Assembly (NCBI RefSeq): GCF_002252505.1
Contig: NZ_NNRL01000147.1
Coordinates: 1-64,000 of the forward strand
DNA length: 64,000 nucleotides
Reading direction: 5' to 3'
DNA from: Brucella grignonensis
GTDB lineage: Bacteria; Pseudomonadota; Alphaproteobacteria; Rhizobiales; Rhizobiaceae
In this document: positions 22,996 through 40,204 of the stretch, piece after piece
Numbering within the stretch: the first letter of the stretch is position 1
How the letters are laid out: every line of letters begins with the position of its first letter
Program-made: the position numbers and the translations under genes
Notes under the pieces: model-generated
Databases searched by the model: none
Told to the model about the DNA's origin: nothing
The model's input: only the letters and a program-made list of their open reading frames with translations

Positions 22996-24024
22996 CTAAC
23001 CTGCCCGAACAACACTGAGCTCTGGCTTCCTTGTGCCTGCAGCCGGAAGAAGTCGTGCAAAATCCGTGAGGATCTGCGCATAATCCTCCGCGTAAAACTC
23101 GTAAGGCAGCTCCAGCCGAAATTCAGAGACAAGCGGCAGAACAGGATCGGCTGCGAGCGTTTCCAGAATTTCTTCGGTCGTGCTCACAATATCGGGCAGG
23201 AACAGCGTGCGGCGTGGACCATGGGCGAGACCCGTTCGCTTGTCGCGCTCGGCGGCAAATTCCGCATAGCGACGGCGAGCGTCTGGACTTGCGCTATCGG
23301 TTGGCAAAATCACCCGACCAAGTGCGACACGCGGCGCACGTTCATGCACCCATTCCTGACGGAAACGTTCAATCAGCGCTTTCTGTGTTGTCAGAAAGTC
23401 ATCCGTATTCTCACCGCTGACGATGTTACCCGTCAGAAGGTTAAACCCCGCCTGACCCGCCCAGCGCGCAGAATTCTGTGATCCGCCACCATACCACAAG
23501 CGGTCGGTCAGCCCTTCGGCAAAGGGCCTTAAACGCGGAATTTGCGCGCCAGCAACATTGCCTGCTTCGGTCTCGCCCGAAAGTGGTTCTGACCTCAGGG
23601 CCTGTGCCAGTTTTTCTGCGCGCGTATGGCTGTAATCGGCGATTGGAGCTGCATCAACAAAATCAGCAATCAGATGCGCAAAGGGCGGCGCTCCTACTGA
23701 AACACCGACATTGAGCCTGCCATGCGAAAGCAAGTCGACGGTTGCCAGATCCTCAGCCAGCCGGAATGGATTTTCATAGCCAAGCTGGATAACGGCAGTG
23801 CCGAGACCGATGTGTTTCGTCCGCTGCGAAGCGGCAGCGAGGAAGGTAGAGGCGGATGAAATACCGCGCTCAAGATGACGCTGCCGTACCCATGCGCTGT
23901 CGTAACTCAGTCGCTCTCCATGCTCGAAGAGCTGAAGCGTATCTTCCAACCCCTGTGCAGGATTATTCTCGCGATGACTACCGGGAATGAGGAAGGCGAA
24001 ATGTTCAATGTGCGAAAGAGGCAT
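22996..24024 (-). CDS. Luciferase-like (LLM-class) flavin-dependent monooxygenase
   Basis: The 342-residue protein has the bacterial-luciferase TIM-barrel pattern: YDSAWVRQRHLERG near 40, IGLGTAVIQLGYENPFRLAEDLATVD near 72 to 97 (key stretch GLGTAVIQ) and LWYGGGSQNSARWAGQAGFNLL near 175. It needs FMNH2 from a separate reductase. ATG follows AAGGGA. It is 15 bases downstream of a GNAT acetyltransferase gene on the same strand, and a decayed NtaA-family gene follows. The substrate is unknown; the context points to an acetylated organosulfur compound. Confidence 0.87.
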   Translation of the reverse strand: MPLSHIEHFAFLIPGSHRENNPAQGLEDTLQLFEHGERLSYDSAWVRQRHLERGISSASTFLAAASQRTKHIGLGTAVIQLGYENPFRLAEDLATVDLLSHGRLNVGVSVGAPPFAHLIADFVDAAPIADYSHTRAEKLAQALRSEPLSGETEAGNVAGAQIPRLRPFAEGLTDRLWYGGGSQNSARWAGQAGFNLLTGNIVSGENTDDFLTTQKALIERFRQEWVHERAPRVALGRVILPTDSASPDARRRYAEFAAERDKRTGLAHGPRRTLFLPDIVSTTEEILETLAADPVLPLVSEFRLELPYEFYAEDYAQILTDFARLLPAAGTRKPELSVVRAG

Positions 24025-24039: not shown

Positions 24040-24666
24040 TCACGCAGCAGTGTCGCGATAGCTTTGAAGCCGCGCCAGAATTTTTGCTTCCTGCACCGCC
24101 TTGCGCTCCTGCACACGCTGTGTTGCCTCTTCAAAAGAAGGCGATGAAGGATAAAGCGGCGAGGAGATCTGCTGGCCCAGTTTCGCACCAATATGCTTTT
24201 CAAAGGGCAGTGAACGGTATTGCTGTACATCAACCGATGTGTCGAACAGCGGCCGATAGCCGAGCGAAATATAAAGCGCTGTTGCTTCTGGTTGACGGAA
24301 GCCCGTAGAAAGATAAGCGCGTGTATAGCCTAAGTCGCCTGCACTTTCTTCCAGTGCCAGCACAATGCGGCGCGCCAGTCCCTGCCTGCGCAAATGCGAT
24401 GCGGTCCAGATACGCTTCAGCTCCACGGTTTCGTCATCATGGCTCATGTAAGCGCCACCAGCGATTGTTTCTCCATCACGCTGAAGAAGCAGAAAACTGC
24501 CCAGCGGCGCCGAAAATGCCTCTATCGGATAGCGTAGGATTTCTGCTCGCGCACCACCGGGACGATCAAGATTGCCGTACCGGTCGCCATATTCTTGTAC
24601 CAACCCATCGATGAGGGGCTGCGCTGCCGGGTCCAAAGGAGAAGACTGGATAATAGTATCAACCAT
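24040..24666 (-). CDS. GNAT-family N-acetyltransferase
   Basis: The 208-residue protein has the GNAT core: GGAYMSHDDETVELKRIW, then the acetyl-CoA loop LRRQGLARRIV (about residues 93-103) and LYISLGYRPLFD. ATG 24666 follows GGAGG by 7 bases, so I reject the 53 extra residues of the longer frame. It is clearly a paralogue of the GNAT at 35017 (shared SFLLL/NFLLL-RDG-TI-GGA, KRIWT, LRRQGLAR, TGFRQPEA), with a 35-residue C-terminal extension. Both sit with flavin monooxygenases, so I infer N-acetylation of an S-substituted cysteine or similar amine before oxidation. Confidence 0.88.
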   Translation of the reverse strand: MVDTIIQSSPLDPAAQPLIDGLVQEYGDRYGNLDRPGGARAEILRYPIEAFSAPLGSFLLLQRDGETIAGGAYMSHDDETVELKRIWTASHLRRQGLARRIVLALEESAGDLGYTRAYLSTGFRQPEATALYISLGYRPLFDTSVDVQQYRSLPFEKHIGAKLGQQISSPLYPSSPSFEEATQRVQERKAVQEAKILARLQSYRDTAA

Positions 24667-24883
24667 AGAAGGCCTCCGCAAAAACAAATCCTGTCCGATT
24701 TGCAATGAGTGGAAGCAAGAAGCCGCCATCGAACAGTATCTCTCTTTAACGGTGCCTCTTTGCTCGCACGTTTGCACGGCATGAACGTTTAATGAGCGTG
24801 CAAATATTGGAAGATCGTTGCTCAATTAATATTCTATAGAAAACATAGATTATCTCGTCATTAAAATTGCTGGCAAGGATCAG

Positions 24884-25311
24884 ATGCCCAACGCACTCAG
24901 TTTTCTCAATAAAAGTCCAATTCAAGACGGCGAAGCGGCCCAAACGGCGCTGAACCGCATGGTAAAACTTGCGCAGAAGGCAGAAGTTGCGGGCTTTCAC
25001 TACTTTTGGGTTGAAGAGTACCACAACTCACCGTGCCCGCCAGTTCGTCACCGGAAGTGCTGATCGGCTTTTTGCTGGCTTACACCTATCATATCTGGAT
25101 CGGTTCGGACGGCGTAATGCCTCAGATGTTTCCATCGGGCCTGGAAGACTTTGCCGAGCTAATTCTGCCGGAATTGCCTCGCCGCGGGCTTGCCCGCAGC
25201 GATTATGATGGTCCGACATTGCGGGACAATCCCGGCTTGAAGATACCGACACATCCTGCAACTTGGGTTCAGAGTTCAGACACCTTAACTGCCATCAAAA
25301 AAGCGGTTTGA
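24884..25311 (+). pseudogene. Decayed, chimeric LLM-class monooxygenase remnant
   Basis: From ATG 24884 the plus frame reads MPNALSFLNKSPIQDGEAAQ and FHYFWVEEYHN, matching the start of the intact LLM gene at 38169 (SLLDKSPVAQ, RFWVAEHHH). A frameshift near 25025 leads to SSPEVLIGFLLA and IWIGSDGVMPQ in another frame, again matching (PSPEVLVSYLLA, IRIGSGGVMLQ). Then, in place of the rest of the barrel, it jumps to LEDFAELILPELPRRGLARSDY, an NtaA-family C-terminus. So the front of one monooxygenase class is joined to the tail of another. The end overlaps the 3' end of the convergent gene at 25285. Confidence 0.75.
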
Positions 25312-26610
25312 AGGGCGTGGAAGGCCCAGGTGTTCACGCAGCGTGCCGCCCTCGTAATCAGTGCGGAAGATACCACGGCGCTGCAGTTCCGGCACCAGTC
25401 TTTCCGCCACATCGTCAAGACCTGCCGGCAGGAAGGGAAATACAACCGTGAAGCCGTCGCTGGCATCCTCTTCCAGCCACTTCTGCATTTCATCGGCAAC
25501 GCTTTCAACGGTTCCGACGAAAGCAAGACCTGAATAACCGCCGTAACGCTGGGCAAGCTGACGGACAGTCAGCTTTTCCTCTTCGGCCAGTTTAAGAACC
25601 TGCGCCCTACCCGACTTACTTGCATTTGTTTCGGGAATTTGAGGCAAATAGTCGTCTGGATCAAAGCCTGATACATCATGGCCCAGAGCAATCGACAGCG
25701 ATGCGATACCGCTATCATAGTGAACAAGACTATCGAGCTTCGCACGTTTCTGCTTGGCTTCCTCAAGGCTATCGCCAAGGACGATAAAGGCTGCAGGCAA
25801 TATCTTCAACGATGATGGCGCGCGACCGGCGGCAGCCAACCGAGATTTCAAATCAGCATAAAGCTTTTTTGATTCAACGATGTCTCGCGGCGCGCAAAAT
25901 ACCACTTCCGCAGTTTCCGCTGCCAGTTGGCGACCCGGTTCTGATTGGCCAGCCTGAACAATCACCGGCCATCCTTGTACGGGACGCGCGATATTGAGTG
26001 GCCCACGCACATTAAAATCATCGCCATGATGATCCAGAACATGCATCTTGGATGGATCAAAGAAGATGCCGCTTTCCTGATCCCGGATGAATGCATCATC
26101 CGCAAAGCTGTCCCAAAGACCTGTTACTACATCATAGAACTCGCGCGCACGCTTATATCGTTCGCCATGCTCGACATGCTCTTGCCTGCCGAAGTTAAGT
26201 GCTGAGTCCGGGTTGGATGTCGTGACGATATTCCACGCTGCACGCCCCTGGCTGATATGGTCAAGTGAGGCAAAACGTCTGGCAATATGATAGGGCTCAT
26301 CAAATGTGGTGGATGCGGTTGCCGCCAACCCGATCTTGTCAGTCACAGCAGCCAAAGCCGACAGCAGCGTGAAGGGCTCAAAGGAAGTAACCGTATGGCT
26401 GCGCTTCAGCGCCTCGACCGGCATGTTGAGGACTGCGAGGTGATCCGCCATGAAGAATGCGTCGAATTTTGCCGCTTCAAGTTTCTGGGCAAAGGTCTTC
26501 AGATGCTTGAAATTGAAATTGGCGTCCGCATAGGCACCGGGATATCGCCAAGCACCAGTATGCAGGCTTACAGGGCGCATAAACGCCGTAAGATGAAGAG
26601 ACTTGTTCAA
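25285..26610 (-). CDS. NtaA/SnaA/DszA-family FMN-dependent monooxygenase
   Basis: The 441-residue protein has the family order: LHTGAWRYPGAYADANFNF near 16, FFMADHLAVLN near 52, FEPFTLLSALAAVTDKIGLAATAS near 78, FASLDHISQGRAAWNIVTT near 112, then GPLNIARPVQGWPVIVQAGQSEPG near 203 and the C-terminal RRGIFRTDYEGGTLREHLGL. I list these as landmarks, each a well-known family stretch. Start is TTG, 7 bases after AGGAA. Such enzymes cleave C-S or C-N bonds using FMNH2 and oxygen; a flavin reductase gene is at 21825. It is second in class to the CmoJ-like gene at 36781 but clearly distinct. Confidence 0.9.
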   Translation of the reverse strand: MNKSLHLTAFMRPVSLHTGAWRYPGAYADANFNFKHLKTFAQKLEAAKFDAFFMADHLAVLNMPVEALKRSHTVTSFEPFTLLSALAAVTDKIGLAATASTTFDEPYHIARRFASLDHISQGRAAWNIVTTSNPDSALNFGRQEHVEHGERYKRAREFYDVVTGLWDSFADDAFIRDQESGIFFDPSKMHVLDHHGDDFNVRGPLNIARPVQGWPVIVQAGQSEPGRQLAAETAEVVFCAPRDIVESKKLYADLKSRLAAAGRAPSSLKILPAAFIVLGDSLEEAKQKRAKLDSLVHYDSGIASLSIALGHDVSGFDPDDYLPQIPETNASKSGRAQVLKLAEEEKLTVRQLAQRYGGYSGLAFVGTVESVADEMQKWLEEDASDGFTVVFPFLPAGLDDVAERLVPELQRRGIFRTDYEGGTLREHLGLPRPSNRFFDGS

Positions 26611-29277: not shown

Positions 29278-29874
29278 TTAAAAGGTTTCTCCGCGCAGAT
29301 GGCTCGCAAGAAAGCCGAGATTATCCTGCCCCCAATAGGTTTCAGTATCGTAGATATAGGTCGGAAAGCCAAAAACGCCCTTGTCGACAGCGCTTTCACG
29401 ATCTGACTTCCACTTGGCCTGAACGTCGTGATCATTCTCACGCCCAACCAGATACTGACCGTTGAAGCCAGCTTCATCCGCAACGGCTCGTCGAACTTCG
29501 GACTGGCCAATATCCTTTGCGTCCACCCAGAAGGCTTGCTGGAGCGCACGGGTCAGTTGCAACCAATTCTGATCCTCAAGATAGGCGGCAATCACCGTAA
29601 AAGAAGCAGGTGTCGGATCGCTTAAAGTTGGGCGATCATCAATGAAAAGCGGCTTGCCACGAAACTTTGCCCAACGCTTGAGATCCTGCGTGCCATAAGC
29701 GCGACGGGCTTCCGGCCGGTTGCGCGAAAAGATGCCGCCATTTTCCTCGATGACGGTAGCAAGATAAGGCTTGATTTCAACCACATGCCGCTCTGCCAGT
29801 TCCTCAAGCGTATCAAGCCCGAGATATGACCAGGGCGAGCCGATGGAAAAGAAATAATCGATAGTTTTTGGCAC
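29278..29874 (-). CDS. DsbA-fold protein, 2-hydroxychromene-2-carboxylate isomerase/GST-kappa-like
   Basis: The 198-residue protein starts at GTG 29874, 3 bases after AAGGACAG..., and reads PKTIDYFFSIGSPWSYLGL, the signature start of the HCCA isomerase/kappa-GST branch of the thioredoxin-DsbA fold. The active residue is the Ser of GSPWSY; no CxxC is present. Later landmarks are FGSPLF-like RGKPLFIDDRPTL, NGQYLVGRENDHDV and VFGFPTYIYD with YWGQDNLGFL at the end. Such proteins usually use glutathione. It lies 34 bases after the third binding-protein gene and closes the long operon; a role in glutathione-dependent steps of S-conjugate turnover is inferred. Confidence 0.88.
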   Translation of the reverse strand: MPKTIDYFFSIGSPWSYLGLDTLEELAERHVVEIKPYLATVIEENGGIFSRNRPEARRAYGTQDLKRWAKFRGKPLFIDDRPTLSDPTPASFTVIAAYLEDQNWLQLTRALQQAFWVDAKDIGQSEVRRAVADEAGFNGQYLVGRENDHDVQAKWKSDRESAVDKGVFGFPTYIYDTETYWGQDNLGFLASHLRGETF

Positions 29875-29908
29875 GTTCTGTCCTTCGCTATAAGCTTCAC
29901 TCAAGAAA

Positions 29909-30838
29909 TTATTTAAACTTCGGCAATCCAGGCGGATTGGTTTCCGATTGCTCCAGTGCTTCCTCTTGGAGATGCCAGCGATCAAGAATGCGCGTATAGT
30001 CTCCATTCTTGATCAAACCATTGGTCGCGATGGTCAAAGCATTGGCAAGTCCGCTGCCTTTGCGCGTTGTAATTGCCACGTCCGAGCGATCCGGCCAGCC
30101 TGCACTCAGCGTGCCGACACGTTTGATATTCTTATCGCGGGAGGCGATGAACACGAGCTGCGCGTGGGGCTGCACGATCACATCAGCCCGGCCTGATTGC
30201 AGAGCCAGAAGGCTGGCAGCCTCATCATCGTAATATTGCAGCTCAAGCGGCTTCAGCCCGGCCTTTTCGTTTTCCTCGCTCCACTTGACGAGGATACGCT
30301 CCTGATTGGTCCCGGCACCCACGATGATGCGGAGACCTGCAGCATCCTTTGGTTCCTTGATGGAGATAACGCCACTGTCGGCTTTCACGAAGAAGCCATG
30401 CAGGCCCTGCCGATAGGTCGAAAAGTCGAACTTTTCCTTACGCTCTTCGGTTACTCCAACATTGGATATCACGGCATCATATTTGCCCGATGCGAGACCT
30501 AGCGGCCAATCGATCCATGCAACCGGAACGCTTTCGAGTTCGACCCCAAGGCTTTCCGCAATGGCCGACGCATAGTCTGCATCCGCACCCACAACGGTCT
30601 TGGCATCCGTCGCATAGGCTGCAAGCGGCGGACCGCCCGGTGCAACAGCAACAGTCAGTTTGCCCGGCGTGACGAACTTGAAATCAGCAGGAATGGCAGC
30701 GATTGCTGCGGCATCTTTCTGCACATGAATGCGGCCGGTCTGTTCGGGCGACAAATCAAAATCATCTTCCGAAAAGGCTGGCAGAGATAAAGCACTTACC
30801 AATGCCCATGTAGCTATTAACAGAACACCTGCTCTCAT
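29909..30838 (-). CDS. Family-3 amino-acid-type ABC solute-binding protein (third tandem copy)
   Basis: The 309-residue periplasmic protein starts MRAGVLLIATWALVSAL (signal peptide, cut near AFS), then EDDFDLSPEQTGRIHVQKD. It shares with the next two genes the tract DLSPEQ, then VTEERKEKFDFSTYR and the C-terminal TRKGSGLA and NPPGLPK. ATG 30838 is 8 bases after GGAG, so the extra 56 residues of the longer frame are rejected. It is the most diverged of three tandem copies (YRQGLHGFFVKADSG instead of YRKDELGFYVKADS), suggesting a different ligand. Confidence 0.9.
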   Translation of the reverse strand: MRAGVLLIATWALVSALSLPAFSEDDFDLSPEQTGRIHVQKDAAAIAAIPADFKFVTPGKLTVAVAPGGPPLAAYATDAKTVVGADADYASAIAESLGVELESVPVAWIDWPLGLASGKYDAVISNVGVTEERKEKFDFSTYRQGLHGFFVKADSGVISIKEPKDAAGLRIIVGAGTNQERILVKWSEENEKAGLKPLELQYYDDEAASLLALQSGRADVIVQPHAQLVFIASRDKNIKRVGTLSAGWPDRSDVAITTRKGSGLANALTIATNGLIKNGDYTRILDRWHLQEEALEQSETNPPGLPKFK

Positions 30839-30908
30839 GAACCATTCTCCATTTATGTAAAGTACGGCGGGCCGGTACAAACGTCCCCTCTTATGCCGGC
30901 CCTGCCCC

Positions 30909-31853
30909 TCACGAACCGCTCTTCGGCAGGCCCTGTGGATTGGTCTTGGCCTCACTGATGGCCTCCGGTCCGAGGTTCCACGTATCGAGAACCTTGTTAT
31001 AGGCACCGCTTGCGATCAGATCGTTGAGAACATTGGTCAGCGGCGCTGCAAGTCCGCTGCCCTTACGCGTTGTGACCGCAATCTCGGCGGTGATCGGCCA
31101 GCCGCCACTGACCGTGCCAACCAGCTTGGTCTTGCCATTGATGCCAGCGGAATAGGCCTGTGTTGCGTTCACGCTGAACACCGCATCGGCACGGCCACTT
31201 TGAATGGCGAGATCTTTGACCGCGTCATCGTCGTAATATTGCACCTCAATCGGTTTCAGACCGGCTGCAACATTCTGGCGATCCCATTCCAGCAGCACCT
31301 TTTCCTGATTGGTGCCTGCATCGGTGATGATCTTGAGGCCTTCAATATCCCTGGGCTGTTTCAGCTCCTTGATCGCGCTGTCAGCCTTGACGTAAAAGCC
31401 AAGCTCATCCTTGCGATAGGTAGAGAAATCGAACTTCTCCTTCCGCTCTTCCGTCACTGTGACATTGGAAATCACCGCATCGAATTTACCGGAAGCAAGC
31501 CCAAGAGGCCAATCGGCCCATGCAACCGAAACCAGTTCCAGATCACGTCCGAGACTGTCGGCAATGATCTGCGCCAGATCAACATCGTAGCCGATGACGG
31601 TCTTGGAATCTGACGCATAGTCATGCAGCGGCAGATGCCCGCTGGTGCTGATCCCGATGGTCAGAACACCGTCTTTGACGAATTTGAAATCCTTGACCTC
31701 ATCGATACGCTTATCGAGTTTTTCAACCCGCAAACGGTTTGGCTGTTCGGGGCTGAGATCAAATTTGCCCTCACTCCATGCAGCATTCGTCATCAGCAAA
31801 GCCCCTGAAATCAGGCCTGCAGTGACGTATCCCGCTTTTCTGATATAAGTCAT
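30909..31853 (-). CDS. Family-3 amino-acid-type ABC solute-binding protein (second tandem copy)
   Basis: The 314-residue protein has the signal peptide YVTAGLISGALLMTNAAWS and then GKFDLSPEQPNRLRVEK. Its middle is nearly identical to the first copy across VISNVTVTEERKEKFDF, STYRKDELGFYVKADS, ITDAGTNQEKVLLEWDRQ and SGGWP. The ligand-side segment near residue 70 (STSGHLPLHDYASDSKTVIG) differs from its neighbours. ATG follows AGGAG by 8 bases. It sits 70 bases from each neighbour. Confidence 0.92.
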   Translation of the reverse strand: MTYIRKAGYVTAGLISGALLMTNAAWSEGKFDLSPEQPNRLRVEKLDKRIDEVKDFKFVKDGVLTIGISTSGHLPLHDYASDSKTVIGYDVDLAQIIADSLGRDLELVSVAWADWPLGLASGKFDAVISNVTVTEERKEKFDFSTYRKDELGFYVKADSAIKELKQPRDIEGLKIITDAGTNQEKVLLEWDRQNVAAGLKPIEVQYYDDDAVKDLAIQSGRADAVFSVNATQAYSAGINGKTKLVGTVSGGWPITAEIAVTTRKGSGLAAPLTNVLNDLIASGAYNKVLDTWNLGPEAISEAKTNPQGLPKSGS

Positions 31854-31928
31854 ATTCCCATCTCCTTGAGTGTAAAACTCTGTGTAATGAACTGATTTCT
31901 TTACATTTCGCCCCGTTACGAGCGGATC

Positions 31929-32870
31929 TTACGATCCGCTTTTCGGCAATCCGGCAGGGTTGGTTTTGGCCTCGTCAACGGCTTCTGAACTCAGGCTCCA
32001 ACGCTCAAGCACCTGATGATATTTGCCGTTCCTGATGAGTTCATTGAGCGACCGCGTCAGTGCATCAGCCAGACCGCTGCCCTTGCGCGTGGTGATTGCC
32101 ACTTCAGCGGTCTGTGGCCAGCCGCCGCTTACCGTTCCGACGAGCTTGGTTTTGCCGTGCTGCGATGCAGCATAGGCCTGCACTGCATTGACGCTGAAAA
32201 CCGCATCCGCACGACCGGATTCAAGCGCGAGGCTCTTGACCGCATCGTCGTCATAATACTGCACCTCGACGGGCTTCAGACCGGCGGCAACATTCTGCTT
32301 GTCCCACTGCAGAAGGATGTTTTCCTGATTGGTGCCTGGATCGGTGATGATTTTGAGACCCGCAATGTCCTTTGGCTCTTTCAGCGACGTGATCGGACTG
32401 TCCGCCTTGACGTAAAATCCAAGCTCATCCTTGCGATATGTTGAAAAATCAAACTTTTCCTTGCGCTCTTCGGTCACGGTCACATTGGAAATCACAGCAT
32501 CGAACTTGCCGGATTCAAGCGAAAGCGGCCAGTCAGCCCAGGCGATTGGCACCAGCACAAGCTCACGGCCCAATGTATCGGAAACCAGCTGAATGAGATC
32601 GGGATCGAAGGCAACGACAGTCTTTGCATCCGTTGCATAAGTGCTGATCGGAGGCACCCAAGGATTAATGCCGACGACGAACTTGCCGTCCTGCACGAAC
32701 TTGAAATCCTTGGGGACAGCATTGACGACGGCTTCGCTCTTTTCCGCGCGCAGACGGTTTGGCTGCTCCGGGCTCAAATCGAGTTCTGCGGAAAAGGCTG
32801 GTGCGCTGAACAGCGTTGCGGCTGCCAGAAAGCTGCCCAATATTGCGTTCTTGTAGTTGCCTGTTTTCAT
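31929..32870 (-). CDS. Family-3 amino-acid-type ABC solute-binding protein (first tandem copy)
   Basis: The 313-residue protein begins MKTGNYKNAILGSFLAAATL (signal peptide, cut near AFSA), followed by ELDLSPEQPNRLRAEKSE. It is a FliY/TcyA-like periplasmic amino-acid-binding protein with DLIQLVSDTLGRELVLVP and SGKFDAVISNVTV. ATG 32870 follows GGAGTC; the longer frame is not supported. It lies directly after the fused permease-ATPase gene, with a perfect palindrome between, and is followed by two paralogues. Amino acids or cystine/S-substituted cysteines are the likely ligands given the operon. Confidence 0.92.
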   Translation of the reverse strand: MKTGNYKNAILGSFLAAATLFSAPAFSAELDLSPEQPNRLRAEKSEAVVNAVPKDFKFVQDGKFVVGINPWVPPISTYATDAKTVVAFDPDLIQLVSDTLGRELVLVPIAWADWPLSLESGKFDAVISNVTVTEERKEKFDFSTYRKDELGFYVKADSPITSLKEPKDIAGLKIITDPGTNQENILLQWDKQNVAAGLKPVEVQYYDDDAVKSLALESGRADAVFSVNAVQAYAASQHGKTKLVGTVSGGWPQTAEVAITTRKGSGLADALTRSLNELIRNGKYHQVLERWSLSSEAVDEAKTNPAGLPKSGS

Positions 32871-32970
32871 TGAATGACTCCTGAGAATAATCTGAATTTT
32901 GGACAAACAATTCCCGTCGATTGCCCTGATCAGGCAATCGTGATTGTCGGGAGCTGTGGTTTGGATCCTG

Positions 32971-33011
32971 AGCGCATCCCGAAAAGTGGAAACCGGTTTT
33001 CGGGATGCGCT
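32971..33011. repeat. Perfect palindrome of the mosaic repeat family, inside an operon
   Basis: AGCGCATCCCGAAAA and TTTTCGGGATGCGCT are a perfect 15-base inverted repeat with an 11-base spacer. It lies between the permease-ATPase gene and the first binding-protein gene, so it will form a strong mRNA hairpin. The core matches the repeat at 12598. Confidence 0.8.
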
Positions 33012-33034
33012 TAAAAACAACGGGCGTTCTGGCG

Positions 33035-34837
33035 TCAGAGGACTTTTGCGAGAAACTCCCGGGTTCGTGGATGCGTTGCCGCATTGAAAAGCTGCTCTGG
33101 CCTGCCGGTTTCGAGAATACGGCCCTCTTCCATGAAGACCACCGTGTCCGCCACTTCACGGGCAAAGCCGATCTCATGGGTTACGATGACAAGCGTGGTG
33201 CCAGAGCGCGCAAGCTCCTTGATGACATCCAGCACTTCACCAACCAGTTCCGGGTCGAGCGCTGAGGTTGGCTCGTCGAACAGGATGACTTTTGGATTGA
33301 GTGCCAATGTACGGGCGATGGCGACACGCTGTTGCTGACCGCCGGAAAGCTGACGCGGATAGGCATTGACTTTTTCGCTGAGACCAACGCGGGCAAGCAG
33401 GCGTTTTGCAATCACGGTCGCGGCATCGCGGCTCAACCCACGGACAATCATCGGTGCTTCGATGATGTTTTCCAGCACGGTCAGATGCGGGAAGAGATTG
33501 AAGTTCTGAAACACCATGCCGACATCGACGCGCTTTTTCAGAATGTCTTTTTCTTTCAGCTCGTAGAGGGTGTTGCCGCTCTGGCGATAGCCCAGCAGTT
33601 CGTCATCAATCGAGATAAAGCCGTCATCCACACGTTCCAGATGATTGATGGATCGCAGCAATGTCGACTTGCCCGAACCCGATGGGCCGAGGATTGCAGT
33701 CACACTACCGGGCTTGATGTGCAGGCTGACATTGTCGAGAACGAGATTGTTGCCGAAGCTCTTCGATACCCCGTGAATATCCACCGCACCGCGTCGCGTG
33801 CCTGTGAACCCGCTGACAGCAAGTGTTTCGGTAATCCGCGCATCCTGTTCGCTCGCTGCAACATTCTCCGCTTTGCTCGATACGGGACTTTTTGCTGGAA
33901 CGAAACGAGCGAAAAGGCGCGTCAGAATGGCTGGCGGCGGGTTGCGCAATGCACCGCGCGAGAAATGGCGTTCGATGTAATATTGCGCGATCGACAGCAC
34001 CGTCATGATGATCAGATACCAGACGGTTGCGACCATCAGTAGGGGAATGACTTCGAGGTTGCGGCGGTAGATGACCTGCACCGTGTAGAAGAGTTCCGGC
34101 AGCGCAAGCACGTAGACCATCGATGTGCCTTTGGCGAGACCGATGATCTCGTTGAAGCCCGTTGGAAGGATCGTGCGCATGGCTTGCGGAAGCACGATAC
34201 GGAAGGCTTGTCTGCGTCGTGGCAAGCCGAGAGCGGCGGCAGCTTCGAGCTGCCCCTGATCGACCGACAGAATGCCGCCACGGATAATTTCGGATGAGAA
34301 CGCAGCCTGATTGAGACTCAATCCCAGAAGAGCAGCAGCGAACGGACTTAGGATCTGAACGGTTGGATATTCGGCAAAGGTGATATCCGTATAAGGCACA
34401 CCAAGCCTAACAGTTTCATATAGATAGCCGAGATTGTTCAGAACGAGAAGTAAGACGATCAGCGGAATGGATCTCAGCAACCAGATATAGGCCCAGGAAA
34501 GACTCGATAGCAGCGGAGAGCGTGAAACGCGAGCAAGCGCCAGCGCGGTTCCCAGCGCAAATCCAAGCACTGTTGCAAGCGCCGTCAGCCACAGCGTTCG
34601 CATCAAACCGACAAGAACGGGCTCGGAGAAAAACCATTCAGCAAAGACCGGCCAACCCCATTTCGGATTCGTTAAAACGGACTGGATAACTGCGATAATC
34701 AGGCCTGCTGCAAAGATTGTTCCAATCACGCGCGCCGGATAACGCGCCGGAACGATCTTGTAGTGCTTGAAGTCGCCCGGACTTACGCGGGAAGTATCTT
34801 CCCTATCTGTCCCTACAAAATCTGTAGCAATTGCCAT
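33035..34837 (-). CDS. Fused amino-acid ABC permease and ATP-binding protein
   Basis: The 600-residue protein joins two subunits normally encoded separately. Residues about 30-295 are a HisM/GlnP-type permease with membrane helices and the EAA loop EAAAALGLPRRRQAFRIVLP near 198. A hydrophilic linker (about 300-350) follows. Residues 350-600 are a GlnQ/HisP-type ATPase with GPSGSGKSTL near 386, LSGGQQQRVAIARTLAL near 490 and VILFDEPTSALDPELVGEVL. The start is ATG 34837 or TTG 34843; GGAG stands upstream of both. The transporter would be a homodimer with two full sets of domains, served by three binding proteins encoded next. Confidence 0.93.
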   Translation of the reverse strand: MAIATDFVGTDREDTSRVSPGDFKHYKIVPARYPARVIGTIFAAGLIIAVIQSVLTNPKWGWPVFAEWFFSEPVLVGLMRTLWLTALATVLGFALGTALALARVSRSPLLSSLSWAYIWLLRSIPLIVLLLVLNNLGYLYETVRLGVPYTDITFAEYPTVQILSPFAAALLGLSLNQAAFSSEIIRGGILSVDQGQLEAAAALGLPRRRQAFRIVLPQAMRTILPTGFNEIIGLAKGTSMVYVLALPELFYTVQVIYRRNLEVIPLLMVATVWYLIIMTVLSIAQYYIERHFSRGALRNPPPAILTRLFARFVPAKSPVSSKAENVAASEQDARITETLAVSGFTGTRRGAVDIHGVSKSFGNNLVLDNVSLHIKPGSVTAILGPSGSGKSTLLRSINHLERVDDGFISIDDELLGYRQSGNTLYELKEKDILKKRVDVGMVFQNFNLFPHLTVLENIIEAPMIVRGLSRDAATVIAKRLLARVGLSEKVNAYPRQLSGGQQQRVAIARTLALNPKVILFDEPTSALDPELVGEVLDVIKELARSGTTLVIVTHEIGFAREVADTVVFMEEGRILETGRPEQLFNAATHPRTREFLAKVL

Positions 34838-35016
34838 GATCAATTTTGCTCCGAAATATAATTCAACTTACGATCCAATGCATACATGCCTGCAATGGAA
34901 GTTACTGAACTCGATATTCGGAGAATATAGGACAAGTTTCAAAACAAATAAGTCTATTTAAACACTGTTGAATGGATGTTTTTTCCATTATTCACGGCCA
35001 TCGTCCACGCATTAAC

Positions 35017-35559
35017 TTAACCTAAAGCCACCTGCTTCAACTCATTGTTGACAGTTTGAAAATCGACCTCATGAATATTATGAAGGTTCTTCTCAAAAGG
35101 AAGCGTTCCATAAATTTCCGGATCGGCGGACACATCAAAGAGCGCCGTATATCCGTTTCTGAGATACAGCTCCTTCGCCTCCGGTTGTCTGAACCCGGTA
35201 GTGAGATAAACTCGCTTATAGCCCTGACGATGGGCCTGTGCTTCAAGTTCCTTGAGCACTTTGCGCGCCAGCCCCTGTCGCCGCAGATCGCTATGTGTCC
35301 AGATGCGCTTGAACTCGGCCGTCACATCGTCATAGCGCATGAATGCACCGCCACCGATTGTCTGGCCATCACGCAGCAGCAGCAGGAAATTGCCGTGCGG
35401 AAGCGCAAAGGCTTCCGGCGGATATTTGTTCATTTCGGCTGCTGCACCCTCTTCATTGAAATAGGTGCCGTAGCGCGTGTCATACTCGATTGTCAGCGCC
35501 TCGATCAGCGGCACCGCACGAATATCGGTCGTTGAAGTGTAGAGAAATTCATCCGCCAT
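35017..35559 (-). CDS. GNAT-family N-acetyltransferase in the sulfur-amino-acid operon
   Basis: The 180-residue protein has the GNAT core NFLLLLRDGQTIGGGAFM, EFKRIWTHSDLRRQGLARKV (acetyl-CoA loop RRQGLA near 92) and LRNGYTALFDVSADPEIYG. It is a paralogue of the GNAT at 24040. Its place between the M20 amidohydrolase and the transporter gene matches YtmI (SnaA), the N-acetyltransferase of the Bacillus S-substituted-cysteine operon. I therefore infer acetylation of the amino group of imported S-substituted cysteine. The gap to the transporter start is about 180 bases, so an internal promoter is possible. Confidence 0.9.
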   Translation of the reverse strand: MADEFLYTSTTDIRAVPLIEALTIEYDTRYGTYFNEEGAAAEMNKYPPEAFALPHGNFLLLLRDGQTIGGGAFMRYDDVTAEFKRIWTHSDLRRQGLARKVLKELEAQAHRQGYKRVYLTTGFRQPEAKELYLRNGYTALFDVSADPEIYGTLPFEKNLHNIHEVDFQTVNNELKQVALG

Positions 35560-35593
35560 GATGGGCCATCCATGTTGAAGAAATCGTGCAATC

Positions 35594-36784
35594 TCAGATC
35601 AGCGAGGCTTCTGTCAGCCGAACCCAGAACAGCGCGGCTGGAAGCAGGATTTCATCGTTGAAATTGTAGTTTGGGCTGTGCAGGCCTGCACTGTCGCCAT
35701 TGCCGACGAAGAAATACGTCCCCGGCTTCTGTTCGAGCATGAAGGCAAAGTCCTCGCTTGCTGTGCGCGGACGGAAATCTTCAATAACGGTGTCTTTGGC
35801 GAAAGTGTTGAGTGCAACCTGTCGCGCAAATTCCGTCTCGGCTTTTGCGTTGATCAGGGCAGGAAAGCCCCACTGATAATTGACATCAGCAACAGCACCA
35901 AAGCTTTCTGCCTGAGAACGCGCGACAGCTTCAATCCGCCGCCGCAATTCCTCGCGCACAGTTTGCGAGAACGAGCGGATGGTAATGCCTAGGTCGACAT
36001 GCGCCGGAATGACATTCAGCGCATCGCCGCCATGAATGGACGCCACCGTCACCACACCCATGTCAAGCGGATCGAGATTGCGCGCGACCACCGTTTGCAG
36101 GGCCAGAACAATGGATGAGGCAACCACAACCGGATCGACCGATTTGTGTGGTTCAGCACCATGCCCCCCACGTCCATTCACGCGAATTCTTGCCCGGTCT
36201 ACCGATGCCATTGCCGGTCCGGTGACAAAGCCAAACTTTCCTGCGGGCACGCCCGGCCAGTTATGCAGCCCATAGACGGCATCGCACGGAAAGCGCTCAA
36301 AGAGGCCCTCTTCGATCATGCGTCGGGCACCTGCCCCGATTTCCTCAGCGGGCTGGAAAATCAGATGCACCGTGCCAGAAAAGCGACTGAACTGGGCGAG
36401 ATAACGAGCCGCTGCCAGCAGAATGGTCGTATGTCCGTCATGGCCACAGGCGTGCATCACACCGGAATTGCTGCTTGCGTAATCAAGACCAGTTTCTTCG
36501 ATGATCGGCAGAGCATCCATGTCCGCCCTGATGCCAATGCTCTTGCCGGAGTTGCCACGCTTCAATGTGCCAACCACGCCAGAACCGCCAACGCCGGTTG
36601 TAACGTCATAGCCCCATTGCTTCAGATAATCTGCCACCAGAGCAGACGTCCGGGTTTCCTTGAACGCCAGTTCCGGATGGGTATGAATGTCGCGACGCAA
36701 AGCGATAAACTCGTCGATAAACGAGGCAAGACCTGCCTCGATTTCCAGTTTACGGTTTACGTCTGGCGACCGTTGAATATTCAT
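35594..36784 (-). CDS. M20D-family amidohydrolase (N-acyl amino acid deacylase)
   Basis: The 396-residue cytoplasmic metallo-amidohydrolase shows [10 protein letters not shown] near 85, HACGHDGH near 112, the catalytic Glu in QPAEEIG near 145, GLHNWPG near 174, the dimerisation-domain motif [13 protein letters not shown] and [10 protein letters not shown] near 340. These are the metal ligands and catalytic residues of hippurate/N-acetyl-amino-acid hydrolases. Its ATG overlaps the CmoJ-like monooxygenase stop by 4 bases. By context it would remove the acetyl group after the C-S bond is broken, as YtnL/SndA does in Bacillus. Confidence 0.93.
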
Positions 36785-38136
36785 GCCGCACCCTTTCGGT
36801 GACTTCCGGCATCATTGTTTTCAACGGGCTTCGCATAACGGCTCCGCGGATGCTCCAACCCAAGATTACCGCGCAGCGTATCGTGTTTCAGGCTGCCTTC
36901 ATGATATCCGCGCTCTTCCAGAATTGGCAGAACATGGGCAATGAAATCATCCAGCCCTTCGGCAATCACCGGGAAGCCAAGGATAAAACCGTCAGCAGCC
37001 TTCTGCTCTTTCCAGAGAATGATTTCGTCGGCAATCTTTTCTGCCGTGCCGATGAAGGACGTGCGCGGTGTCGCCACATTCAGCGCCACTTCACGCAAAC
37101 TGAGCTTGTTTGCGGCCGCGTCGCGCTTGATGCGATCCGTTGTCGAACGAAAGCTGTTCTTGCCGACGTCACCAAGATCAGGGAAAGGCGCATCGAGATC
37201 ATAGGCGGTGAAATCATGGTGGTCGAAGAAACGTCCGAGATAGGACAGCGCTTCGTTGATGCTTACGAGATTGCGGATCGCCTGATATTTCTCTTCGGCT
37301 TCTGCATCGGTTCGTCCAACGATGGGACCGATGCCGGGATAAATGCCGATATCGTCCTGCGAACGCCCATGGGCAACAGCACTTGCTTTGATCTGCGCAT
37401 AAAATGTCTGGCTGTCCTCGATGGTGCCCGCATTGGTGAAGACGGCGTCCGCGTGTTTGCCCGCAAGTCCGACACCCGCTTCGGAAGCACCGGCCTGAAA
37501 GATGACAGGCTGGCCCTGAGGTGAACGCTGGATATTGAGCGGCCCTTCAACCGAGAAGAAGCGTCCTTTGTGGTCGAGCCGATGGAAACCTTCAGGCTTG
37601 TAAAACTGCCCGTTCTCACGATCACGAACGAAGGCATCTTCATCCCATGAATCCCAAAGACCTTTGGTCACTTCAAGATATTCATCGGCGATTTCATAAC
37701 GCAGAGCGTGCTCGGGATGTGGCTTGCCATAATTGCGGCCTGAGCCCTCGAGTGGTGATGTCACCACGTTCCAGCCCGCACGCCCGCCGGAAATGAGATC
37801 AAGCGATGCGAACTGTCGTGCAACGGTGAACGGATCACTATAGGACGTCGAAACCGTGCCTGCGAGACCAATGCGTTTCGTGTTCGCCGCGAGCGCCGAA
37901 AGCACGGTCAAAGGCTCAAAGCGATTGAGAAAATGCGGAATGGAAATCTCGTTGATATAAAGCCCGTCTGCGATGAAGGCGAAGCTGATACCAGCCTCTT
38001 CAGACTTGCGTGCCGCATCAATGAAAAACTGGAGGTTCACGCTGGCATCTGCCGGCCCGGATGGATGTTTCCAGGCATTCATATGCCCGCCTGCACCCTG
38101 CAGCATCACACCGAATCTAATCTGCTTGGAACTCAT
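36781..38136 (-). CDS. NtaA-family FMN monooxygenase resembling Bacillus YtnJ/CmoJ
   Basis: The 451-residue enzyme carries [20 protein letters not shown] near 52 and [54 protein letters not shown], then [39 protein letters not shown] and the C-terminal [11 protein letters not shown] recall near-identical landmarks in YtnJ (CmoJ), which cleaves the C-S bond of N-acetyl-S-alkyl-cysteine. ATG follows GGAGT. It is coupled to the M20 gene by a 4-base overlap and is 32 bases from the LLM gene upstream. A free flavin reductase (21825) could supply FMNH2. Confidence 0.92.
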
Positions 38137-38168
38137 TTGAGGTACTCCCTATAGCCAATGGCTTTGGA

Positions 38169-39170
38169 TCAGGCGGCAATAGCCAGACGTTCGCCTGCGA
38201 GGCTTTCGATGGCAGCTAATCTTTGCTCATGTGAAACTGCGGGGAACTCGAGCACAAACTCTGTCACCCCATATTGCTCGTGCAGCTCATCGAGCTTCTG
38301 CTTCACCTGCTTGGCCGAGCCTACGAGCACATTTGGATGCTTTTCTTCAACCCGGTAATCAGTCTCTCCAGCCTGCCGCGCAAACTCGGCCGCGGCCTCC
38401 TGTGTGCCAACCGAAACTGATTGTCCGGAGGCGAGATGAACCTTGAAGATTTTGATTTTCGAGACCGCGGCATCAACCGCGTCTTGGCTCTCGGCAACGA
38501 CCGCACCAAGCGCCAGAACGGGCACTTTTCCAGTCACATTGCGATAGGCGTCGAAGGTCTTCTGCAGATTGGCAGTATCGCCATTCAAATGACCGGCATA
38601 GACAAAATCCCAGCCGGAATGTGCGGCGAGCAACGCGCTCTCCGGGCTTGCGCCAAGCACAAATTTTTCCGCAGACACCTGTGGTTTCGGGGTTGCGGCC
38701 AGTCCTTCAAACGGACCCGATGCGATCTTGTCACCGCCAAGAAATGCGCTGAGCTGTTCAAGCTTGCTGTTGAAATCGAGCCGCTTTTCGCTGCTTGTTT
38801 CCTGCTGCAAGGCCTTGGTTGATAATGGAAGCCCGCCCGGAGCCTTGCCGACACCGAGATCAACGCGCCCGCGCCCAAGGGCCGCCAGAAGGTTGAAGTT
38901 TTCGGCAACTTTGTAAGGGCTGTAATGCTGAAGCATCACGCCGCCAGAACCAATTCTGATCCGCTTTGTCGATGCCAGAAGATAAGAAACAAGCACCTCA
39001 GGCGAAGGCCCGGCCAGTTCATCCGCGTGATGATGTTCCGCGACCCAGAACCGCTTGTAGCCCGCCTGTTCGGCAGCCTGAGCATAAGACACGGTATTGG
39101 CAAGAGCGGTTTCCGCGCCCCCTGTTTGCGCCACAGGGCTCTTGTCGAGAAGACTTAACTGATAGGGCAT
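38169..39170 (-). CDS. LLM-class flavin monooxygenase resembling Bacillus YtmO/CmoO
   Basis: The 333-residue protein begins MPYQLSLLDKSPVAQTGGAE, then YKRFWVAEHHHADELAGPSP, RIRIGSGGVMLQHYSPYKVAENF and later DFVYAGHLNG and SVGTQEAA. This is the single-component-like luciferase-family subgroup (YtmO/CmoO, MsnO8 group) whose first 60 residues are strongly conserved. It is the first gene of the long operon. I place the start at ATG 39170; a GTG four codons before is possible. A relic of the same type lies at 24884. Confidence 0.92.
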   Translation of the reverse strand: MPYQLSLLDKSPVAQTGGAETALANTVSYAQAAEQAGYKRFWVAEHHHADELAGPSPEVLVSYLLASTKRIRIGSGGVMLQHYSPYKVAENFNLLAALGRGRVDLGVGKAPGGLPLSTKALQQETSSEKRLDFNSKLEQLSAFLGGDKIASGPFEGLAATPKPQVSAEKFVLGASPESALLAAHSGWDFVYAGHLNGDTANLQKTFDAYRNVTGKVPVLALGAVVAESQDAVDAAVSKIKIFKVHLASGQSVSVGTQEAAAEFARQAGETDYRVEEKHPNVLVGSAKQVKQKLDELHEQYGVTEFVLEFPAVSHEQRLAAIESLAGERLAIAA

Positions 39171-39405
39171 TGGCACATCCACTTTCGCTGAGCATCAGAA
39201 TTTCGAGGCGGAGCCTTCTGTGCAGCGCGCACGAGCACGGATCAGCCGAACATAGTTTCTCGGCTTCGCAACAAAATCTCAAAGATCAGGCGACTGAAAT
39301 ATGCAGTGTTGAGGCAAATTTATTCTGTGTGGGCGGAATATGTTGAAATGGGCAGCTTGGTGACTGCTCCTCCACCAGTCTTGATAAAAAATGATAGATA
39401 GATTC

Positions 39406-39454: not shown

Positions 39455-40180
39455 TCAGAGATAACGGCGTGGGTTGGCTGCCAGATAGAAAGTATTGATC
39501 AGCGTGTTGATGTCGAACACCGGTAAACCGGATTCAGCAGCCACATAGGACGAAAACGGGCACATATTTGTGCATTCAAACAGAATAGCGCCCGGATTTT
39601 CACAGCTTGCCATGAACTCCCGCGTCATTTCCAGCATCTCTTCCTTCAGCACTTCCGTGTCAAGATAATCGCGGCCTTCAATATAGGTCTGCGGAAATTC
39701 AGCATTCTGCTTCATCCCCTGCACCTGCACGGGAATGACCTCAGATGACCAGCCAACGCCTTTGAAATGTGCATCATTCATATGATGCGCGCGCTCGGTA
39801 AAAACGCCGATGACTTTGCCAGGAGCCAGCATTGCATGAATGATCGGTGCCTGCATCAAGGATGAAGTAAAGACCGGAATGTTGACCGCTGCCGCGATAT
39901 CCTTTTGAAACGGCCCAAGAAAGCCGCAACTCGTGGTAATGGCGCGAACGCCTTCCGCTTCCAGCTCGCGCGCGGCTTCGATAAAAGGCTCAATCAGCTT
40001 GGGATCAGGATTATTGCCCATAATGCGTGTGGCATGAGCACCTTTCACCGTCTTGTAACGCACAGGAAAATCATAGGACAGGGCATTGCCAATATCGCCA
40101 GCCGGACGAGGAAAAATCGTATCCAGCATCAGTACGCCGATCTGCTGGCCATAATTGGTGTAGCCACCTTTGAGCATCAT
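39455..40180 (-). CDS. Asp/Glu-racemase-family protein (copy 1)
   Basis: The 241-residue protein has two conserved catalytic-type cysteines: TTSCGFLGPF near 82 and FECTNMCPFS near 200, as in cofactor-independent aspartate/glutamate racemases and related hydantoin racemase or decarboxylase enzymes. ATG follows AAGGA. It is the last gene of an operon with an amino-acid ABC importer and a D-amino-acid dehydrogenase-like gene. It is a paralogue of the product of 43061 (shared IGVLMLDT-FPRP-GD-GN, then TSCGF, ECTNM). The substrate is unknown. Confidence 0.85.
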   Translation of the reverse strand: MMLKGGYTNYGQQIGVLMLDTIFPRPAGDIGNALSYDFPVRYKTVKGAHATRIMGNNPDPKLIEPFIEAARELEAEGVRAITTSCGFLGPFQKDIAAAVNIPVFTSSLMQAPIIHAMLAPGKVIGVFTERAHHMNDAHFKGVGWSSEVIPVQVQGMKQNAEFPQTYIEGRDYLDTEVLKEEMLEMTREFMASCENPGAILFECTNMCPFSSYVAAESGLPVFDINTLINTFYLAANPRRYL

Positions 40181-40204
40181 AGTTTCAGTCCTTCGAGTTC
40201 GGGA

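What the first reader, a model, noticed from the sequence alone, without database searches (positions are those of the whole stretch)
29278..39170. Alphaproteobacterial S-substituted-cysteine salvage operon, counterpart of Bacillus ytmI
Seen: one minus-strand run of CmoO-like LLM monooxygenase, CmoJ-like NtaA-family monooxygenase, M20 deacetylase (4-base overlap), GNAT acetyltransferase, amino-acid ABC importer and a thioredoxin-fold isomerase-like gene. Known: the B. subtilis ytmI operon has an N-acetyltransferase (ytmI), a cystine-type ABC importer (tcyJKLMN), ytmO, ytnJ and an M20 hydrolase (ytnL), and salvages sulfur by acetylation, oxidative C-S cleavage and deacetylation. Inference: this locus does the same for S-substituted cysteines, with a DsbA/HCCA-isomerase-like protein in the place of the glutaredoxin-like YtnI and without ribR. 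I do not know this arrangement described in Brucellaceae.
Basis: partly seen in the sequence, partly recalled or inferred. Interest (0 to 1): 0.85.

Follow-up and report, generated by a model that had tools for sequence, protein, structure and literature searches.

The report
Rhizobial operon salvaging S-alkylated cysteine
A bacterium that looks like a relative of rhizobia carries a gene cluster that probably takes up damaged (S-alkylated) cysteine, caps it, cuts the carbon-sulfur bond with two flavin enzymes and returns cysteine, using the same two cutting enzymes as Bacillus but different helper genes around them.

Summary
The observed genes are there. On the minus strand, 39170 to 29278, nine genes run: MsnO8-type LLM, NtaA-type LLM, M20 (4-base overlap), GNAT, fused ABC permease/ATPase, three binding proteins, DsbA-fold protein. 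The two flavoenzymes match the Bacillus pair YtmO/CmoO (41%) and YtnJ/CmoJ (54%), best in both directions. In a tree the NtaA-type protein sits with YtnJ, apart from YxeK/ScmK, and the same genome has a separate YxeK-type locus; so S-alkylcysteine dealkylation is the best reading, S-(2-succino)cysteine less likely. The rest is not a copy of ytmI: acetyltransferase and binding proteins are not orthologues, and YtnI and RibR relatives are missing. The DsbA-fold protein has no cysteine (17 of 17 sequences) and resembles 2-hydroxychromene-2-carboxylate isomerase and GST-kappa, so it cannot be a dithiol stand-in. The cluster is kept in ten of ten opened Rhizobiaceae plasmids (picked from the best hits), with a third monooxygenase gene whose window orthologue lies 5 kb away, outside the finding's span. 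One Phyllobacterium plasmid carries the pair with a YtmI-family acetyltransferase, which suggests that the two acetyltransferase types replace each other. Verdict: real, a new variant of a known pathway; substrates and the DsbA-fold protein's role are untested.

The parts
38169..39170 (-). MsnO8-family LLM monooxygenase, CmoO/YtmO-like (proposed N-acetyl-S-alkylcysteine sulfoxidase)
   Evidence: TIGR03558 312 bits; YtmO 41.5%/311 aa; best in both directions
36781..38136 (-). NtaA-family FMN monooxygenase, CmoJ/YtnJ-like (proposed sulfoxide C-S cleavage)
   Evidence: YtnJ 54.5%/426 aa; PDB YtnJ 533 bits; best in both directions; YtnJ clade 95/97
35594..36784 (-). M20 amidohydrolase (proposed N-acetylcysteine deacetylase)
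   Evidence: YtnL 41%, YxeP 38%; HACGHD and PAEE motifs kept; two other M20 genes in the genome score nearly as well with YtnL
35017..35559 (-). GNAT acetyltransferase (proposed S-alkylcysteine N-acetyltransferase)
   Evidence: PF00583; not an orthologue of YtmI: 25%/100 aa
33035..34837 (-). fused ABC permease and ATPase, polar amino acid type
   Evidence: PF00528+PF00005; TcyN model 314 bits, below its cut-off of 406; TcyN 50%/252 aa
31929..32870 (-). SBP1, family 3 solute-binding protein
   Evidence: PF00497; 68% to SBP2, 57% to SBP3
30909..31853 (-). SBP2, family 3 solute-binding protein
   Evidence: PF00497
29909..30838 (-). SBP3, family 3 solute-binding protein
   Evidence: PF00497
29278..29874 (-). 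cysteine-free DsbA-fold protein, HCCA-isomerase/GST-kappa-like
   Evidence: PF01323; profile search finds only HCCA isomerase and GST kappa chains (5 of 5 hits); no Cys in 17 of 17
22996..24024 (-). third LLM monooxygenase (LLM3); its orthologue sits inside the operon in Rhizobiaceae
   Evidence: 53-60% to the LLM gene after the binding proteins in 8 of 8 rhizobial plasmids and 57-58% in two more
24040..24825 (-). second GNAT gene, next to LLM3 (long ORF; true start probably downstream)
   Evidence: 54.7%/159 aa to the operon GNAT
25285..26610 (-). second NtaA-family monooxygenase, outside the YtnJ clade
   Evidence: 46% to YxeK, 40% to YtnJ; tree, placement weak (81/89)
39252..39350 (-). conserved 5' non-coding block upstream of the operon, candidate promoter/operator
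   Evidence: alignment of the window with 10 same-genus upstream regions

Best explanation
This is an operon that imports S-substituted cysteines and recovers cysteine by the N-acetylation, S-oxidation, C-S cleavage and deacetylation route. Proposed steps: the fused permease-ATPase with three paralogous binding proteins imports the amino acid; the GNAT protein N-acetylates it; the CmoO-like MsnO8 enzyme makes the N-acetyl-S-alkylcysteine sulfoxide; the CmoJ-like NtaA enzyme cleaves it to an aldehyde and N-acetylcysteine sulfenic acid; this is reduced, most simply by glutathione, possibly with help from the cysteine-free GST-kappa/HCCA-isomerase-like protein; the M20 enzyme deacetylates N-acetylcysteine to cysteine. 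Shown here: gene identity, reciprocal best matches of the two flavoenzymes, conserved gene neighbourhood. Inferred: every substrate, the acetylation and deacetylation specificity, the role of the DsbA-fold protein and of LLM3, transcription as one unit, and regulation.
For: Two flavoenzymes adjacent and matching YtmO and YtnJ, best in both directions; YtnJ clade placement at 95/97 with YxeK outside; more columns shared with YtnJ only (81) than with YxeK only (49). CmoO and CmoJ chemistry is experimental in B. subtilis (PMC10863075, parts 1 and 2 of 3), and N-acetylcysteine deacetylase activity of ScmP, YhaA and YtnL is experimental (PMC12757645, abstract, section 4 and discussion). Gene set kept in 10 of 10 opened Rhizobiaceae plasmids; four of them (L058, L078, L090, L091) list an MsuE-type FMN reductase and a gamma-glutamylcyclotransferase downstream, two (L054, L055) a cystathionine beta-lyase. 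Same set reshuffled in a Pantoea plasmid, and in part (no M20) in a Burkholderia plasmid. In Phyllobacterium the MsnO8/YtnJ-type pair stands with a GNAT that is 44%/183 aa to YtmI, so window-type GNAT and YtmI appear to exchange. A separate YxeK-type locus (55%, 498 bits) with a YxeQ-like gene, ABC importer and flavin reductase may cover the succinocysteine route in the same genome.
Against: No substrate was tested. GNAT and SBPs are not orthologues of the Bacillus parts. The M20 match is not specific: with YtnL as query two other own-genome places score 283 and 277 bits against 298. B. inaquosorum has a second MsnO8-type gene almost as close (210 against 230 bits). Two of 14 same-genus loci (L075, L077) have the CmoJ-like gene without an MsnO8 gene. 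The fetched Burkholderia and Phyllobacterium stretches hold no M20 match at E 1e-5. A Hyphomicrobiales contig (L007) has a YtnJ-like gene (45% to NtaA) without MsnO8, GNAT, M20 or DsbA-fold matches in 14 kb. No sulfur-control element was found: no Rfam hit in 22000-45000; promoter-like sites 7 against 6.9 expected. Gaps of 179 and 164 bases mean one transcript is not proven.
Confidence: 0.75

Rival explanations
1. The operon breaks down S-(2-succino)cysteine, as B. subtilis scm/yxe does: one monooxygenase cleaves N-acetyl-2-succinocysteine without prior sulfoxidation.
For: NtaA is 46% identical to YxeK; acetylation and deacetylation genes are common to both routes; scm loci are found in diverse bacteria (PMC9706529, section 4 read).
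Against: NtaA is closer to YtnJ (54%) and in its clade. A sulfoxidase-type gene is kept next to it in 12 of 14 same-genus regions, and the YxeK route uses none. A YxeK-type gene of 55% identity with a YxeQ-like neighbour lies elsewhere in the genome.
Confidence: 0.1
2. The operon uses another organosulfur or amino-polycarboxylate compound (nitrilotriacetate, sulfonate, thiophene type), and the CmoJ resemblance is family-level only.
For: The top PDB hit (3sdo, 620 bits) is named nitrilotriacetate monooxygenase by its depositors; the family is broad (TIGR03860).
Against: YtnJ scores 533 bits; a chain named for the nitrilotriacetate family (7e36_B) 321, DszA 256, riboflavin lyase 219, EDTA monooxygenase 208, dimethylsulfide monooxygenase 205. 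The acetyltransferase and M20 genes beside the flavoenzymes fit no nitrilotriacetate or sulfonate route that I know (recalled). 3sdo falls in the same clade as the window protein; whether its name rests on an assay was not checked.
Confidence: 0.08
3. A version of the best explanation, not exclusive of it: the natural input is already a sulfoxide (plant S-alk(en)ylcysteine sulfoxides), or S-methylcysteine from plants, so that the operon serves use of plant sulfur more than repair of damaged cysteine.
For: Many of the listed plasmid carriers are legume nodule isolates; common bean stores gamma-glutamyl-S-methylcysteine (PMC6572574, abstract); a gamma-glutamylcyclotransferase gene lies downstream in 4 of 10 rhizobial plasmids opened; a Pantoea carrier came from onion bulb; two same-genus loci lack the sulfoxidase-type gene.
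Against: Sulfoxidase-type gene present in 12 of 14 same-genus regions and 10 of 10 rhizobial plasmids opened; the ecological links are associations only, in records picked for matches.
Confidence: 0.35
4. The DsbA-fold protein is a thiol-disulfide enzyme that replaces YtnI.
For: DSBA Pfam domain; it lies at the end of the operon.
Against: No cysteine in 17 of 17 sequences; profile search finds only HCCA isomerase and GST kappa chains; no match in 3 of 10 rhizobial operons. Replacement of YtnI by a glutathione-using protein is not excluded.
Confidence: 0.03

Closest known systems
B. subtilis ytmI operon (ytmI-tcyJKLMN-ytmO-ytnI-ytnJ-ribR-ytnL-ytnM; CmoO = YtmO, CmoJ = YtnJ, names recalled), S-alkylcysteine salvage
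   Same: CmoO-type and CmoJ-type flavoenzymes, M20 amidohydrolase, a GNAT, a polar amino acid importer with more than one binding protein
   Different: Acetyltransferase and binding proteins not orthologous; fused permease-ATPase; no YtnI, RibR or YtnM match in the window; extra HCCA-isomerase/GST-kappa-like gene and, in Rhizobiaceae, a third LLM gene
B. subtilis scm (yxe) locus, S-(2-succino)cysteine breakdown
   Same: Acetylation-cleavage-deacetylation logic, NtaA-family monooxygenase, M20, importer
   Different: ScmK acts without a sulfoxidase partner; window NtaA groups with YtnJ; no YxeQ match in the window; a scm-like locus exists elsewhere in this genome
2-hydroxychromene-2-carboxylate isomerase (2imd) and GST kappa
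   Same: Similar length (198 against 203 aa for 2imd), profile match over 188 residues (E 1e-11), serine-type SPxS motif, no CXXC
   Different: Distant match; no activity known; its partners here are monooxygenases and a deacetylase-type gene

Membership tests
ytmI-type (CmoO/CmoJ) S-alkylcysteine salvage | CmoJ/YtnJ orthologue | tested here: met
   (520 bits, next own-genome place 383)
ytmI-type (CmoO/CmoJ) S-alkylcysteine salvage | CmoO/YtmO orthologue next to it | tested here: met
   a second Bacillus gene scores 210 against 230 bits
ytmI-type (CmoO/CmoJ) S-alkylcysteine salvage | YtmI-family N-acetyltransferase | tested here: not met
   GNAT fold but 25%/100 aa; best matches in the B. inaquosorum genome are 24 and 20 bits, at other genes; YtmI has no tblastn match in the window at E 0.01. 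A YtmI-type enzyme occurs with the pair in Phyllobacterium
ytmI-type (CmoO/CmoJ) S-alkylcysteine salvage | M20 N-acetylcysteine deacetylase | tested here: inconclusive
   41% to YtnL, but other own-genome M20 places score close
ytmI-type (CmoO/CmoJ) S-alkylcysteine salvage | TcyJKLMN-type importer | tested here: inconclusive
   ATPase 50% to TcyN; SBPs 21-25% to TcyJK
ytmI-type (CmoO/CmoJ) S-alkylcysteine salvage | YtnI glutaredoxin-like protein and RibR | tested here: not met
   no tblastn match of YtnI, RibR or YtnM in the window at E 0.01 or in the 14 same-genus regions at E 0.001
ytmI-type (CmoO/CmoJ) S-alkylcysteine salvage | Growth on S-alkylcysteine, repression by sulfate or cysteine | not testable with these tools
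   needs strains
scm/yxe S-(2-succino)cysteine breakdown | ScmK/YxeK orthologue | tested here: not met
   window NtaA groups with YtnJ; the YxeK-type gene is on another contig
scm/yxe S-(2-succino)cysteine breakdown | 2SL lyase in place of ScmK | not tested
   no lyase domain in the operon's genes by Pfam; genome not searched for it
DsbA/glutaredoxin thiol-disulfide enzyme | CXXC active site | tested here: not met
   0 cysteines in 17 of 17
HCCA isomerase / GST kappa | Sequence profile, and a serine where thiol enzymes have the first active-site cysteine | tested here: met
   the role of that serine is recalled
HCCA isomerase / GST kappa | Glutathione binding or use | not testable with these tools
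   structure prediction never ran, queue full

The most novel reading that the evidence does not exclude
In glutathione-making bacteria the CmoO/CmoJ pathway has recruited a cysteine-free GST-kappa-like protein that uses glutathione to reduce (or release from a mixed disulfide) the N-acetylcysteine sulfenic acid made by CmoJ, doing by a non-homologous mechanism what a glutaredoxin-like protein may do in Bacillus, which lacks glutathione (recalled); the acetyltransferase and importer were likewise assembled anew around the conserved flavoenzyme pair.
Probability: 0.3. Interest if true: 0.6.

Novelty: new variant of a known kind. Interest (0 to 1): 0.45.

Why it matters
CmoJ carries out a C-S cleavage that its authors call, to their knowledge, the first enzymatic Pummerer rearrangement (PMC10863075). 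If this operon works as proposed, the route extends to symbiotic rhizobia and their relatives, often on plasmids, with exchangeable acetyltransferases and a new candidate sulfenic-acid-handling protein. That gives a direct test for two open points: how the sulfenic acid is reduced, and what the natural S-alkylcysteine is. Legume hosts that store S-methylcysteine (PMC6572574, abstract) make the second question ecological. It would also correct annotation: in the records opened these genes carry only the names LLM class oxidoreductase, M20 aminoacylase or DsbA family protein.

Tried and rejected
Nitrilotriacetate or sulfonate use: rejected on scores. Succinocysteine as main substrate: rejected mostly because of the separate YxeK-type locus. 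CXXC redox role of the DsbA-fold protein: rejected. Riboswitch control: nothing at Rfam gathering scores in 22000-45000. Promoter and terminator scans: no more than shuffles (7 against 6.9; 5 against 12.4). Structure prediction of the DsbA-fold protein was asked six times and never ran. Literature: ten searches, judged from their listings, some of them capped (8 of 17 shown; 15 of 597), showed no paper on this operon in alphaproteobacteria; only the open PMC library was searched. The two primary papers on the Bacillus pathway (Chan 2014; Hazra 2022) are not held and were not read, so their taxon surveys may already include rhizobia.

Rows dropped or chosen: in the NtaA tree seven of the 37 rows left after de-duplication (101 candidates and two window proteins) were taken out as partial, long or fused, and the 3sdo chain was added, giving 31. 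One search used 17 DsbA-fold sequences; L076 (no match), L072 (cut) and L077 (match in pieces) were not used. The plasmids opened were picked by hand from the NtaA and MsnO8 hit lists, mostly because they carried annotation. The first residue of the DsbA-fold query was set to M for its GTG start in scripts.
Full report
What is there. The minus strand from 39170 to 29278 holds nine ORFs with small or moderate gaps. Pfam and NCBIfam give: MsnO8-family LLM (TIGR03558, 312 bits, cut-off 167), NtaA/DmoA-family monooxygenase (TIGR03860, 508 bits, cut-off 280), M20 amidohydrolase (TIGR01891, 358 bits, cut-off 154), GNAT, a fused ABC permease-ATPase whose ATPase part scores best with the TcyN model (314 bits, below that model's cut-off of 406), three family 3 binding proteins (52-68% identical to each other), and a DSBA-domain protein.

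Comparison with Bacillus. I used the Bacillus inaquosorum locus L001, whose YtnJ is 96% identical to the query taken from the solved YtnJ. The gene names are recalled from the known order of the B. subtilis operon. BLASTP: NtaA with YtnJ 54.5%/426 aa, MsnO8 with YtmO 41.5%/311 aa, M20 with YtnL 41.4%/382 aa, ABC with TcyN 50%/252 aa. Searches in both directions: YtmO finds the window MsnO8 first (229 bits, next 149) and the window MsnO8 finds YtmO first (230, next 210). YtnJ finds the window NtaA first (520, next 383) and NtaA finds YtnJ first (520), then YxeK (432). YtnL finds the window M20 first but only just (298, then 283 and 277). The window GNAT's best matches in that Bacillus genome are 24 and 20 bits, at other genes; with YtmI it is 25% over 100 aa, while YtmI and YxeL are 44% to each other. 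The binding proteins are 21-25% to TcyJ and TcyK. YtnI, RibR, YtnM and YtmI have no tblastn match in the window at E 0.01.

CmoJ or ScmK. In a 31-row tree the window NtaA lies in a 12-row group with YtnJ (support 95/97), YxeK outside it. In the aligned trio NtaA, YtnJ and YxeK, 81 columns are shared by NtaA and YtnJ only, 49 by NtaA and YxeK only. The own genome holds a second cluster on contig 53 (L084): binding protein, permease, ATPase, YxeQ-like (40%), YxeK-like (55%, 498 bits), a flavin reductase (PF01613) and a GntR regulator. By the rule of PMC9706529 (section 4; at least three of five components) this would count as a yxe locus if its importer is taken as YxeMNO. tblastn with GNAT, GNAT2, YtmI, YxeL, M20, YtnL and YxeP showed no match in that 20-kb stretch at E 1e-5. 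The succinocysteine route thus seems to have its own locus, and the window operon is best read as the S-alkylcysteine route.

Conservation. The window NtaA has a relative of at least 69% identity in 14 of 34 same-genus genomes and in 0 of 25 others of the same call. In a wider family sample 11 of 199 genomes, own included, reach E 1e-150, so the operon is sparse. I fetched 14 same-genus regions around those matches. Ten have the whole run from MsnO8 to the DsbA-fold gene (L070 with two binding proteins). L076 has the run without a DsbA-fold match, L072 is cut by its contig end, and L075 and L077 lack MsnO8; L077 is also in broken pieces, from a genome of 85% completeness. In plasmids, 1317 records match NtaA, 157 of them at 60-80%. 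Of the ten Rhizobiaceae plasmids opened, all ten keep MsnO8-NtaA-M20-GNAT-ABC-SBP-SBP-LLM3 in order (in L056 the LLM3 and in L057 the M20 and SBP3 matches come in pieces; in L090 and L091 the importer genes are by annotation only) and seven add the DsbA-fold gene; L056, L057 and L079 show no match for it. Downstream extras: an MsuE-type FMN reductase and a gamma-glutamylcyclotransferase in L058, L078, L090 and L091; a cystathionine beta-lyase in L054 and L055. Outside Rhizobiaceae three plasmids were opened. Pantoea (from onion bulb) has the set reshuffled, with NtaA 56% to YtnJ. Burkholderia has GNAT, SBP, MsnO8, NtaA and ABC, without an M20 match in 23 kb. Phyllobacterium has MsnO8, a GNAT that is 44%/183 aa to YtmI and has no match to the window GNAT, a peptide-type ABC importer and a YtnJ-type enzyme (56%), also without an M20 match in 23 kb. 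None of the three has a DsbA-fold match at E 1e-5. A Hyphomicrobiales contig found (L007) has a YtnJ-like gene without the partners in 14 kb, so a YtnJ-like gene alone does not prove the operon.

What follows from this. The two flavoenzymes are the fixed core; acetyltransferase and importer vary. The Phyllobacterium case, where the YtmI type replaces the window type beside the same pair, is the best evidence found here that the window GNAT does YtmI's job. This is inference from neighbourhood, from one record.

The DsbA-fold protein. Its true start is probably the GTG at 29874 (198 aa), matching the 198-aa rhizobial versions. It has no cysteine, nor has any of 16 relatives. A ten-sequence profile finds five solved chains at E 0.001 or better, all HCCA isomerase or GST kappa. 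Kept residues include GSPWS and FGFPTY...YWGQDNL. The alignment places the first serine of SPWS opposite the corresponding serine of the HCCA isomerase; that this serine binds glutathione sulfur there is recalled. The protein cannot be a dithiol substitute for YtnI, whose sequence has a CSYC motif. A glutathione-dependent role in handling the sulfenic acid is my guess. Its absence from 3 of 10 rhizobial operons means that it is not essential to the route, or that another gene can replace it.

The wider locus. LLM3, inside the operon in Rhizobiaceae, lies at 22996-24024 in the window, next to a second GNAT (55% to the first) and a second NtaA-family gene (25285-26610). In G022 (L068) LLM3 stands directly after the DsbA-fold gene. 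So the finding's span leaves out a likely partner. What LLM3 does is unknown; it matches no NCBIfam model above its cut-off.

Known chemistry used. CmoO sulfoxidation, CmoJ cleavage to sulfenic acid and aldehyde, and the order acetylation, oxidation, cleavage, reduction, deacetylation are from PMC10863075 (parts 1 and 2 of three read; passages). N-acetylcysteine deacetylase activity of the YtnL family is from PMC12757645 (abstract, section 4, discussion). [quoted passage not shown] Ten searches of the open library showed no description of this operon in their listings; the two primary Bacillus papers could not be read.

Verdict. Real, ordinary in logic, new in composition: a new variant of a known pathway.

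Noticed in passing
window 24841-24980 and 25114-25300, + strand: Remnants of LLM-type genes: 25114-25300 matches the end of an NtaA-family gene in 5 of 5 relatives compared (82-87%); 24841-24980 matches L067 only of the five, and a YtmO-like head is seen at 24896-25030. Looks like a deletion.
   Followed up: partly
window 27617-28393, - strand: LysR-type regulator near the operon; the 258-aa ORF is short for the family and its end looks broken. Described only.
   Followed up: no
window 32974-33008: Near-perfect palindrome between the ABC and SBP1 genes; one exact copy and four copies with three mismatches in the genome, so a dispersed repeat rather than an operon-specific element.
   Followed up: partly
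window 39455-44840, - strand: Upstream same-strand cluster: Asp/Glu-racemase-like protein, FAD-dependent oxidoreductase (DAO domain), amino acid ABC importer. The racemase-like gene is kept upstream in L064, L065 and L069.
   Followed up: no
L084 8171-15520 (own genome, contig 53): Separate YxeK/YxeQ-type locus with flavin reductase, without an acetyltransferase or M20 match nearby; it may share those with the window operon.
   Followed up: partly
L089 11001-22479 (Phyllobacterium zundukense plasmid): MsnO8, YtmI-type GNAT, peptide-type ABC importer and YtnJ-type enzyme in one run: a hybrid between the Bacillus and rhizobial versions.
   Followed up: partly
L075 and L077: CmoJ-like operon without the sulfoxidase-type gene but with LLM3 upstream; LLM3 might take its place, or the input is already a sulfoxide.
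   Followed up: no
L079 21324-21920 (Sinorhizobium fredii plasmid): A nitroreductase-family gene stands where the DsbA-fold gene is in other rhizobial operons.
   Followed up: no
upstream of the operon in rhizobial plasmids: An A+T-rich stretch with a short inverted repeat GTCTA...TAGAC, exact in L058 and L080 and nearly so in L056 and L078, unlike the block conserved in the window's genus.
   Followed up: no
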